From the NCBI GenBank assembly GCA_947445035.1, contig CANFCK010000013.1, forward strand, positions 1-64,000: a stretch of DNA of 64,000 nucleotides, in the 5' to 3' direction. The DNA comes from Deltaproteobacteria bacterium (GTDB taxonomy: Bacteria > Myxococcota_A > UBA796 > SXON01). Position 1 is the stretch's first letter; every line of letters starts with the position of its first letter. Under the pieces are notes generated by a model. It was not told the DNA's origin and did no database searches. It saw only the letters and a program-made list of their open reading frames with translations. The position numbers were made by a program, and so were the translations under genes. Below, in pieces: positions 2 through 3,006 of the stretch.

Positions 2-394
2 ACCGATTTCGTGTGCAGCCTCTATGCCGACGCAACCGGAAGCCGGACGGCGCCGGACGGCTGCCCGGACTGCACCTGGTCCTTCACCACCGCGGTCACC
101 TCCGGCGGTGAAGAGGGTGCGTCCTGCGGCGACTTCGTGTCGGACCCGAGCTTCCTCGACTACACCTACGACCAGCTCTACTTCGCCAACTATTGGGATG
201 GCTTCGGCTGGTCGGACTACTACTCGGGTGTCGAGGATCTCGTGTTTGTGCACCTGAACGGCGCCGATTACGAAGGCTGGTACGCCTACGCCTACAACGA
301 TCTCGCGGCCGGTACCTACAACGTCGATGGGGACTCCAAAGCCGCCAAGTTCGCGGTGCTCGACTTCGGCGACTACTACGAGTTCTATTACTAG
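2..394 (+). CDS. Tyr-tailed secreted paralog A (5' end outside window)
   Basis: The frame is open from the window edge, so the N-terminus with its presumed signal peptide is missing. The visible 130 residues match the C-terminal domain of the three following genes: VCxL/VCDI, a CPDC pair, a later single Cys, a YWDGFGWSDYY segment corresponding to WSDDxxxDGWGWADxY, then EDLVFVHL and YEGWYAYAYN. The protein ends in DYYEFYY, the same aromatic tail type as the paralogs. No known family is recognised. By analogy with copies C and D it is probably a lipoprotein or otherwise exported protein. I am confident it is coding and paralogous; the function is unknown. Confidence 0.85.
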   Translation, partial: TDFVCSLYADATGSRTAPDGCPDCTWSFTTAVTSGGEEGASCGDFVSDPSFLDYTYDQLYFANYWDGFGWSDYYSGVEDLVFVHLNGADYEGWYAYAYNDLAAGTYNVDGDSKAAKFAVLDFGDYYEFYY

Positions 395-446
395 CACCGA
401 CGCCACCGCGTCCGAAGCGGTTGACGCTCGTCGAAAGGGCGGTAGG

Positions 447-1342
447 ATGCTTCCGGGAGGAGGTCACCACGCGTCCGTGGCTGCGCTTGCAGGACTCCTC
501 CCGATGACGCTGTTCGGCTGTCTTTTCGACAGGCCTGCGTTCACGAACGACACCGGGGCGCCCAGCCCCTCCGCCGAACCCGACAACTGGGACGACACCC
601 CGCCCCGCGTGCGCCCGGGCGCCATGAGGCGTGCGGCGACGGCATCGACATCGACATCGACGGGTATGCTGGCAGCGCCGACTGCAACGACCATCGCCAT
701 CGGGTCAGCCCGGCCGAGCCGGAGCTGTGCGACGACGCGGTCGACAACAACTGCAACGGAACCATCGACGAGAGCTGCTCCGCGGGACGTCCAGGGGACA
801 CCGGCGTCGCCTACGTCTATGACCACGGCACCCACGACTATGACGGGTCCTCGGTGAGCGTCAGCTATGGCTTCGGGGCGAAGAACTTCGGCACCAACGG
901 CTGGGTCTGCGACATCGTCGCCGAGTACCGCAGCACCGCCAACGGTCCATCGGGGTGTCCAGCGTGCACCTTCGCGTTCGAGACCAAGGTCATCGACGCC
1001 GACACCTACGGCGCGTACTGCTCAAGCTGGGCCTTCGGCGGAACCACGTTCACCGACTACACCGCCGCCGATTTCTGGTGGAGCGACGACACCGTTCGCG
1101 ACGGCTGGGGGTGGGCCGACGCGTACACCTACGTCGGCACCGACGGGACCGTCTACGACCTCGAGAAGGTCCTCTTCGACCACATCACCTACACCTCGTC
1201 GTCCGCAACCTACAATGGATGGTACTTCCGGGCGTTCAACTTCCCCGGCGGGGGCATCGCCCAAGTCACCGGCGATGCGTTTCGCTCCGAGTTCGAAGTC
1301 GACCTCCGGGGCGGCTACTACTACTACTATTTCTACTACTAG
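447..1342 (+). pseudogene. Tyr-tailed lipoprotein paralog B, split by a -1 frameshift
   Basis: A lipoprotein-like start with lipobox LFGC followed by LFDRPAF is read in one frame from ATG 447, or from GTG 477, which lies 13 bases after an AGGAGG. The rest of the gene (ACGDGID, a degenerate MopE motif DCND...DDAVDNNCNG, then the paralog domain with VCDI, CPAC and DGWGWADAY, ending YYYYYFYY) is in the frame reached by losing one base. The switch lies between about 600 and 640, in a stretch with several C and G runs. Copy C has the same layout in one frame, which shows what the intact gene should look like. This is either a real pseudogene or a one-base sequence error. The frame after the break is fully open to 1342, which favours an error or a very recent mutation. 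Confidence 0.75.
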
Positions 1343-1388
1343 CGGCAGCGTCCAAAGCGGGGTACGATGCCCCACCTCAGAGTTTGCC

Positions 1389-2354
1389 ATGCATGTCACC
1401 CCGGCGTTTTCGATGATGGTTCCCCTGCTGCTGGCCGGCTGCGTCTTCGACAAGCCGCCGACGTCGACCGACACGGGCGACCAATTCGCCGACGCCGACA
1501 CCGACACCGACTCGGATACGGACAGCGATTCGGACACCGACGCCGACACTGACACCGACACCGACACCGACACCGACACCGACACCGACACCGACACCGA
1601 CACCGACGCGGATACCGACGTCGACCCCAACGCCACCGACGATGATGGCGACGGCTTCAGCGAAGACGACGGCGACTGCGACGACACCAAGTTTCGCATC
1701 AATCCCGATGCCGAAGAAAAGTGCGACGATGGGATCGACAACAACTGCGACTCGCAAATCGACGAGGCCTGTGACGACACCGCCACTGGAACCGCCTCAC
1801 TTTTCTATCATGGCACCACCGATTACGACGGGTCGTCGCTGACGGTGACCTACGCCATGGGCGCGCAGAACGCCGCAACCGACGAGTGGGTGTGCGACAT
1901 CGAAGTCGAATACGATGGCAGCACCGACGGCCCAACCGGGTGTCCCGACTGCACCTACGCGTTCTCCACGAGCATCACCAACGCCGGAACCTACGGCAGC
2001 TACTGCTCCTCGTGGGTCTCGGGCGACGGCGATAGGTTCTACGACAAAACCTACGCTGACTATTGGTTTTCGGACGACAGCATCCTCGATGGCTGGGGCT
2101 GGGCCGACTACTACACCTACCTCGACAGCGCTGGGACCGAGTACGACCTGGAAAGCGTGCTGTTCAACCACATCGTCTACGAGGGCTACGACAGCTACGG
2201 CGACCCGGTGTCCTATGATGGCTGGTACTTCCGGTCGTTCAACTTCCCGGACGGGGGCCTGTACTATGTCACCGGGGACGAACGGAGCGCGGAGTGGAAA
2301 ACAGAAATCCTCGACGCTCGAGATAGGCCTTATGAGTACGTCTTCTACTACTAG
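1389..2354 (+). CDS. Tyr-tailed lipoprotein paralog C with Asp-Thr linker and MopE motif
   Basis: 321 residues from ATG 1389. Order: a short signal peptide with lipobox LLAGC (Cys18); a low-complexity Asp/Thr/Ser linker (about residues 30-78); a MopE-type motif (DDDGDGFSEDDGDCDD, then CDDGIDNNCD) of the kind that binds divalent metal; then the paralog domain with VCDI, CPDC, YCSSW, DGWGWADYY and FNHIVY, ending YEYVFYY. The four domain cysteines could form two disulfides after export. It is the most complete copy of the four-gene array and the reference for the broken copy B. The family is not recognised. A surface-anchored calcium-binding lipoprotein is an inference from the lipobox and the acidic motifs. 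The next gene starts 23 bases before this stop. Confidence 0.85.
   Translation: MHVTPAFSMMVPLLLAGCVFDKPPTSTDTGDQFADADTDTDSDTDSDSDTDADTDTDTDTDTDTDTDTDTDTDADTDVDPNATDDDGDGFSEDDGDCDDTKFRINPDAEEKCDDGIDNNCDSQIDEACDDTATGTASLFYHGTTDYDGSSLTVTYAMGAQNAATDEWVCDIEVEYDGSTDGPTGCPDCTYAFSTSITNAGTYGSYCSSWVSGDGDRFYDKTYADYWFSDDSILDGWGWADYYTYLDSAGTEYDLESVLFNHIVYEGYDSYGDPVSYDGWYFRSFNFPDGGLYYVTGDERSAEWKTEILDARDRPYEYVFYY
1496..1622 (+). repeat. GACACC hexamer array coding an Asp-Thr linker
   Basis: Nine perfect GACACC units run from 1551 to 1604, flanked by degenerate units (GACTCG, GATACG, GACAGC, GACGCC). In frame they code alternating Asp-Thr/Ser/Ala in the linker of paralog C. Because the unit is six bases, changes in copy number keep the frame and only alter linker length. 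Confidence 0.9.
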
Positions 2355-3006
2355 CTGGGCCCTCGTCCTGGTCGCGGCCGTGGCCTGCGCCACGGACGAC
2401 GCAACCGACACCAGTGCCGACGCTGAGTTGCCCTGCTGGGAGCGCATCGGCGGCTCCTGCGGGGACAGCGGTGACACCGGGACGGCGTGGCTGGTGTGGC
2501 ACGGCGAGTTCACCGTCACCGACGGCACGCTCCACGCGTCCCGCGGACTCGCCGCCAAGAACATTGCCACCGAGGAGTACGTCTGCGACATCGCCGCTAC
2601 CTTCAAAGGGACTGAGGCGGCGCCCGATTCGTGCCCAGACTGCACCTTCAGCTACAGCCTCGCGCGCACGGGCGGCGGTACGTCCGGCACCCACTGCGAT
2701 CGATGGGTTCGTTCTTCGACGATCTTCGACCAGGCCGACTACTACGACTTCTACTTTGGCCGCTCGATGGACGGCTTCGGCTTCGCGCAGGTCTACGACT
2801 ACTCCTCCGGAACGTACAGCTTCACGCTGGAGTCGGTGGTCTTTGCCCACTTGACCTCGGACAAATACGAAGGCTGGTATATCTACGGCTACAACTACCC
2901 GACCCAGGGCGTGTACCACGTGCGCGGCACTGCCGACGCGGCCACCTTCGAAGGCTACCAGCGGAGCGCCGAGGGCACCGCCTACTACTACTACTTCAGC
3001 TACTGA
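2332..3006 (+). CDS. Tyr-tailed lipoprotein paralog D, without MopE motif
   Basis: 224 residues from ATG 2332, overlapping the end of copy C by 23 bases. The signal peptide ends in VAAVAC (Cys19), a plausible lipobox. A short Asp/Thr-rich linker follows; the DxDGDG motif seen in B and C is absent. The domain then shows VCDI, CPDC, HCDRW, MDGFGFAQVYDY, VVFAHL and YEGWYIYGYN, and ends AYYYYFSY. Four conserved cysteines are present. Translation is probably coupled to copy C through the overlap. The function is unknown; a surface lipoprotein is likely from the signal sequence. Confidence 0.82.
   Translation: MSTSSTTSWALVLVAAVACATDDATDTSADAELPCWERIGGSCGDSGDTGTAWLVWHGEFTVTDGTLHASRGLAAKNIATEEYVCDIAATFKGTEAAPDSCPDCTFSYSLARTGGGTSGTHCDRWVRSSTIFDQADYYDFYFGRSMDGFGFAQVYDYSSGTYSFTLESVVFAHLTSDKYEGWYIYGYNYPTQGVYHVRGTADAATFEGYQRSAEGTAYYYYFSY

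What the first reader, a model, noticed from the sequence alone, without database searches (positions are those of the whole stretch)
2..3006. Array of four paralogous exported proteins with a shared tyrosine-rich C-terminus
Four tandem genes encode one domain with four conserved cysteines (VCDI, CPDC, one more Cys) and a Trp/Asp/Gly block, and all end in a Tyr/Phe-rich tail (DYYEFYY, YYYYYFYY, YEYVFYY, YYYYFSY). The copies differ in linker and in the presence of a MopE metal-binding motif. I do not recognise the family. The conserved aromatic end may be a sorting, assembly or cross-linking signal.
Basis: partly seen in the sequence, partly recalled or inferred. Interest (0 to 1): 0.65.

Follow-up and report, generated by a model that had tools for sequence, protein, structure and literature searches.

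The report
Myxococcal lipoproteins ending in tyrosine strand
These neighbouring genes are copies of a previously undescribed family of membrane-anchored proteins from uncultured myxobacterial relatives, whose compact outer domain always ends in a tyrosine-rich strand that appears to be part of the domain itself and not a delivery tag.

Summary
Window 2-3006 carries four tandem paralogs, one truncated by the contig end and one with its signal peptide out of frame. The same genome has a fifth copy and a truncated sixth. They share a ~165-190 aa C-terminal domain with four near-invariant cysteines (C..CPxC..C) that ends at a Tyr/Phe run. No Pfam, NCBIfam or PDB family matches; only the separate MopE motif does. 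The domain occurs in all 22 genomes of the family and at least 51 of 63 of the order, but in 2 of 308 sampled phylum genomes outside the class. The tail is conserved: 81% aromatic in the genus, 58% in the rest of the family, 38% and 16% in two other families. Members are lipoproteins: lipobox, acidic stalk, optional MopE motif, terminal domain. Two AlphaFold models (domain pLDDT about 90-96) give an all-beta meander with the tail as its last strand and no significant fold match. In 71 genomes, every Tyr-rich five-aromatic run directly before a stop lies on this domain, so the tail is not a portable sorting signal; these genomes carry MYXO-CTERM tags for that. Copies at two unlinked loci also evolve in concert. 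Ligand binding by the domain is inferred only.

The parts
2..394 (+). Copy 1: C-terminal domain only, 5' part lost at the contig start; tail DYYEFYY at 371-391
   Evidence: Open reading frame from the contig edge; domain E 2e-12 to copy 3 and 2.6e-50 to the profile
447..521 (+). Copy 2: signal peptide and lipobox (MLPGGGHHASVAALAGLLPMTLFGC) in a frame different from its domain
   Evidence: Frames; apparent frame break between about 590 and 640
680..772 (+). Copy 2: MopE motif (PF11617)
   Evidence: Pfam E 4.5e-11, above curated cut-off
800..1342 (+). Copy 2: C-terminal domain; tail YYYYYFYY at 1316-1339
   Evidence: 56% identity, E 4e-57 to copy 3
1389..2354 (+). Copy 3: complete lipoprotein gene; lipobox LAGC ends at 1442, Asp-Thr stalk about 1497-1630
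   Evidence: Translation; lipobox pattern
1674..1766 (+). Copy 3: MopE motif (PF11617)
   Evidence: Pfam E 9.2e-9, above curated cut-off
1785..2354 (+). Copy 3: C-terminal domain; tail YEYVFYY at 2331-2351
2332..3006 (+). Copy 4: complete lipoprotein gene, start codon inside the tail codons of copy 3 (other frame); lipobox Cys at residue 19, short stalk, no MopE motif
   Evidence: Translation; lipobox pattern
2476..3006 (+). Copy 4: C-terminal domain, all-beta in the model; tail YYYYFSY at 2983-3003 forms the last predicted strand
   Evidence: Profile E 2.7e-81; AlphaFold2, domain blocks pLDDT mostly 92-97

Best explanation
The array belongs to an undescribed, order-restricted family of lipoproteins, very probably of Myxococcota. 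Shown or strongly indicated: a lipobox signal peptide tethers the mature protein to a membrane by a lipid; an acidic Asp-Thr/Ser/Ala stalk of variable length, sometimes with MopE motifs, links it to a ~165-190 aa C-terminal domain with four near-invariant cysteines; the Tyr-rich C-terminus is bound to that domain. Predicted: the domain is an all-beta meander and the tail is its last strand. Inferred: the cysteines form two stabilising disulfides; the domain is a barrel-like ligand- or surface-recognition head held off the membrane by the stalk; the Tyr-rich last strand completes the sheet and leaves an aromatic face or edge that takes part in that binding or in pairing of two heads. Recurrent duplication and exchange between copies give a small, variable repertoire per genome.
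For: Lipobox in 60 of 106 members by a strict pattern, including copies 3 and 4. Four cysteines in 105 of 106. Domain ends at or within a few residues of the tail in nearly all family members. Two models of distant members, pLDDT 83.3 (domain mostly 92-97) and 91.3, same strand order, tail as last strand. Tail more conserved than every block but CPxC within the family. Tyr-rich ends confined to this domain. Best, non-significant fold hits are mostly barrel-like ligand binders.
Against: No significant structural match, so the barrel and ligand-binding reading rests on topology and aromatic content only. No coordinates: barrel closure, disulfide pairing and tail exposure were not checked. The two models share one 17-row alignment. 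No gene-neighbour pathway points to a function. Relatives in other families keep the domain with fewer aromatic end residues, so the Tyr run is not needed for the fold as such.
Confidence: 0.55

Rival explanations
1. The tyrosine tail is a sorting signal read by a dedicated sortase or secretion system, as MYXO-CTERM or PEP-CTERM are.
For: It is C-terminal, conserved and on exported proteins.
Against: Confined to one domain in 71 genomes; no transmembrane helix or Arg cluster; the proteins already have a lipid anchor signal; the same genomes carry MYXO-CTERM tags; model places it in the fold.
Confidence: 0.05
2. The domain is a small outer-membrane beta-barrel and the tail is its BAM-recognised C-terminal beta-signal.
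For: Meander of about nine strands; aromatic C-terminus in the window's genus; a few outer-membrane or designed transmembrane barrels among the non-significant fold hits.
Against: Last residue is R, L, P or K in other clades; lipoprotein signal and long acidic stalk; conserved cysteines; fold hits not significant.
Confidence: 0.1
3. The exposed tyrosines cross-link or self-assemble (dityrosine, aromatic zipper), building a surface layer or pairing neighbouring lipoproteins.
For: Up to six or seven consecutive aromatics, so both faces of the strand are aromatic and one is likely exposed; several paralogs per genome.
Against: No oxidase or assembly partner recurs next to the genes; nothing tested directly; short stretch for assembly.
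Confidence: 0.15
4. The four cysteines form a metal or redox centre (CPxC as zinc knuckle or thiol-disulfide motif), and the domain handles metal together with the MopE motif.
For: Weak, short profile hits to zinc-ribbon, rubredoxin-like and zinc-finger entries around CPxC; adjacent MopE motif in some members.
Against: Hits are weak and cover about 20 residues; cysteines of exported lipoproteins are usually in disulfides; the MopE motif is absent from most copies by the pattern used.
Confidence: 0.12

Closest known systems
MYXO-CTERM (TIGR03901) surface-sorting tag of Myxococcota (PMC11980579)
   Same: Conserved C-terminal element on exported proteins of the same genomes
   Different: MYXO-CTERM has a Cys motif, a transmembrane helix and an Arg-rich end and sits on many unrelated proteins; the Tyr tail has none of these and sits on one domain only
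MopE motif (PF11617, Cu-binding_MopE)
   Same: Present in copies 2 and 3, N-terminal to the domain
   Different: A separate optional motif; copy 4 lacks it, and it does not define the domain
Lipocalin/nitrobindin/LolA-type barrels
   Same: All-beta meander, exported or ligand-binding barrel hits head the fold lists
   Different: No significant match (best E 0.06 to 0.1, TM about 0.2); Cys pattern and Tyr end are not features of those families
Staphylococcal Csa1 lipoproteins
   Same: Paralogous lipoproteins in tandem, by general knowledge; top-ranked but non-significant fold hit
   Different: E 0.064, TM about 0.2, 9% identity; not evidence of kinship
C-terminal beta-signal of outer-membrane barrels
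   Same: Aromatic C-terminal strand
   Different: Last residue is not conserved as aromatic; lipoprotein with a stalk

Membership tests
Bacterial lipoprotein (signal peptidase II substrate) | Hydrophobic signal followed by a lipobox ending in Cys | tested here: met
   Copies 3 and 4 and 60 of 106 members by a strict pattern; many others by eye. Processing not tested.
MYXO-CTERM (TIGR03901) | C-terminal Cys motif, transmembrane helix, Arg-rich end; profile match | tested here: not met
   No TIGR03901 hit for copies 1-3 or 64 domains in NCBIfam scans; sequences end in the Tyr run
MYXO-CTERM or other portable sorting tag | Occurs on unrelated protein domains | tested here: not met
   All 29 Tyr-rich five-aromatic ends in 71 genomes lie on this domain
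MopE motif proteins (PF11617) | Profile match above curated cut-off | tested here: met
   Copies 2 and 3 only; domain itself has no Pfam match
Lipocalin/nitrobindin/LolA-type barrels | Significant fold or profile match | tested here: not met
   No Foldseek match at E 0.001; no profile match
Lipocalin/nitrobindin/LolA-type barrels | Closed barrel with ligand cavity | not testable with these tools
   Strand order only; no coordinates given
Outer-membrane barrel with beta-signal | Aromatic C-terminal residue preceded by alternating hydrophobics | tested here: not met
   Last residue is R, L, P or K in several clades
Staphylococcal Csa1 family | Significant fold or sequence match | tested here: not met
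   E 0.064, probability 0.21

The most novel reading that the evidence does not exclude
A fold without solved counterpart, restricted to one order of Myxococcota, whose Tyr-rich terminal strand has evolved into an aromatic interaction or cross-linking edge that lets a set of paralogous lipoproteins pair or assemble at the cell surface, with copies at unlinked loci kept similar by gene conversion.
Probability: 0.15. Interest if true: 0.65.

Novelty: new variant of a known kind. Interest (0 to 1): 0.42.

Why it matters
It defines a new, easily recognised protein family (C..CPxC..C domain with a Tyr-run end) in uncultured Myxococcota that the libraries searched here leave unnamed, separates it cleanly from MYXO-CTERM-type sorting tags, and gives a testable case of a lineage that enriched one terminal beta-strand in tyrosine. 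It does not by itself reveal a new mechanism.

Tried and rejected
Portable sorting signal: rejected by the genome-wide pattern test. DNA-repeat artefact of TAC codons: rejected, since Tyr codon use in the tail equals that of the rest of the domain. Known domain: no match in Pfam, NCBIfam or PDB sequences. MSCRAMM hits of NCBIfam to copy 3 lie over its Asp-rich stalk and MopE region only, far below cut-off. Fold searches in PDB and viral libraries gave nothing significant. Inferring disulfide pairing from paired losses of cysteines failed because 105 of 106 members keep all four. Paper searches found no description of the family, but used few and narrow terms. Locus neighbours do not point to one pathway.

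Full report
WHAT IS THERE. The window is the first 64 kb of a 120-kb contig of a 5.27-Mb genome assembly, 92% complete. At its very start lie four tandem copies of one domain on the + strand. Copy 1 (2-394) is cut by the contig edge. Copy 2 has its domain at 800-1342, but its signal peptide and lipobox (447-521) lie in another frame, so as assembled it is broken; whether that is real or an assembly error cannot be told here. Copy 3 (1389-2354) is complete: lipobox, Asp-Thr repeat stalk, MopE motif (9e-9), domain. Copy 4 (2332-3006) starts inside the tail codons of copy 3, has a lipobox and a short stalk, and no MopE motif. A fifth copy lies on contig C4, and a sixth runs off the end of C5.

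THE DOMAIN IS A REAL, UNDESCRIBED FAMILY. With the window copies as a profile, all 22 genomes of the same taxonomic family carry the domain, mostly in several copies: 21 in the first search, the 22nd with a wider profile. With a 64-row profile, 51 of 63 genomes of the order match, none of 8 others of the class, and 2 of 308 other sampled genomes of the phylum, weakly (only nine candidates per genome were scored, so these are lower bounds). The organisms in named records are metagenome-assembled 'Deltaproteobacteria' or 'Proteobacteria', by their isolate names partly from lakes. All 13 genomes tested carry MYXO-CTERM tags over the curated cut-off while 14 control genomes carry none, and MYXO-CTERM is reported as universal in Myxococcota (PMC11980579), so the phylum is very probably Myxococcota; no name was available to confirm it. 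No Pfam or NCBIfam model and no PDB sequence matches the domain convincingly, alone or as an alignment. In 106 aligned domains the four cysteines are kept in 105 (one lacks the fourth), with CPxC, W/F-x-F, a G-F block and a Trp as further fixed points.

ARCHITECTURE. The domain ends the protein. Upstream comes a stalk of 26-210 residues, mostly rich in Asp with Thr, Ser or Ala, then the lipobox. A strict pattern finds the lipobox in 60 of 106 members, and many of the others show one by eye (some are cut by contig ends). Position +2 after the Cys is mostly F, V, G, P or S.

THE TAIL. In the genus of the window the last seven residues are 81% aromatic (68% Tyr), against 18% in the rest of the domain; in the rest of the family 58%; in two other families of the order 38% and 16%, though from only eight domains each. 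In the family the six tail columns average 2.15 bits against 1.42 for other non-Cys columns, and only the windows over the CPxC block are more conserved. Tyr codons are used as elsewhere in the domain, so this is selection on protein and not a DNA repeat. The exact last residue differs by clade (Y, R, L, P or K), which argues against recognition of the C-terminal residue.

IS THE TAIL A SIGNAL? Five consecutive Tyr/Phe codons followed by TAA or TAG occur 23 times in 71 genomes, and all 23 coincide with copies of this domain; with TGA there are 8, of which 6 lie on the domain and the other two are Phe-rich. Reversed-pattern controls give a handful, mostly in one genome. A looser pattern with one extra codon gives further clade-specific ends on the domain, plus a few unrelated Phe-rich ends. 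The tail is therefore bound to this domain and is not a portable tag.

STRUCTURE. AlphaFold2 on copy 4 (17 sequences) gives mean pLDDT 83.3 and pTM 0.74, with the domain mostly at 92-97 and signal and stalk disordered. Strands run 49-63, 66-77, 83-93, 106-118, 146-159, 162-175, 180-189, 197-209 (broken) and 219-223, the last being the Tyr tail. A distant relative (L012, identity about 28%) gives pLDDT 91.3, pTM 0.85 and the same order of strands, the last being 156-159. Both models used the same 17 domains, so they are not fully independent. Foldseek finds no significant match in PDB or viral models; the best PDB hits are mostly barrel-like proteins such as nitrobindin, VioE, RBP, VtrC and LolA at E 0.06 or worse. 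The fold therefore has no recognised solved counterpart by this test.

GENOMIC SETTING AND EVOLUTION. Three recurrent loci were seen. Locus A (the window array) adjoins a HIT-domain gene, a sigma-factor gene, a repeat-bearing protein gene and polA. Locus B, found across the family and in part in another family of the order, lies between aldehyde dehydrogenase, Flp-like pilin (weak Pfam match) and phosphoesterase genes on one side and TPR and sulfatase-TPR genes on the other. Locus C holds the fifth copy. On a tree without the tail columns, locus C copies form one group (SH-aLRT 90), but A and B copies of the same or closely related genomes group together (G014, G019, G000/G021), and a single origin of the six tested B copies is rejected (AU p about 1e-57). 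Either gene conversion between unlinked loci or repeated replacement explains this. Gene order gives no shared pathway.

HOW IT PROBABLY WORKS. Shown: lipoprotein architecture by sequence, conserved domain, tail tied to the domain. Predicted: all-beta domain with the tail as last strand. Inferred: a disulfide-braced head on a flexible acidic stalk that binds a ligand or surface partner, with the aromatic last strand as part of the binding or pairing face. The rivals (membrane barrel with beta-signal, cross-linker, metal or redox centre) are not excluded; the sorting tag is unlikely.

VERDICT. Interest is moderate because function remains unknown.

Noticed in passing
L043/L044, L054/L055, L060/L061 and the window array: Copies at two unlinked, syntenic loci (A and B) group by genome and not by locus, which suggests gene conversion between them; locus C copies group by locus.
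   Followed up: partly
window 3839-4525 (-): Protein encoded next to a sigma-70-type factor gene (4522-5142, -) carries about four copies of a 20-residue unit around GGGVDVADDVM (60-nt spacing); L060 has a similar protein with more copies. No Pfam match.
   Followed up: no
L044, L047, L050, L055, L057, L061, L064, L066, L070, L073, L095, L097 and others: A conserved gene neighbourhood: aldehyde dehydrogenase, a short Flp-like pilin (STVEYMLLISVIVIAL), metallophosphoesterase, the domain gene, TPR protein, sulfatase-TPR protein.
   Followed up: partly
L004 83-1414 (+): Gene next to the fifth copy encodes many MopE-type repeats and ends in a stretch that looks like a C-type lectin domain by eye.
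   Followed up: no
window 447-640 (+): Copy 2 changes frame between its lipobox and its MopE motif: pseudogene or assembly error.
   Followed up: no
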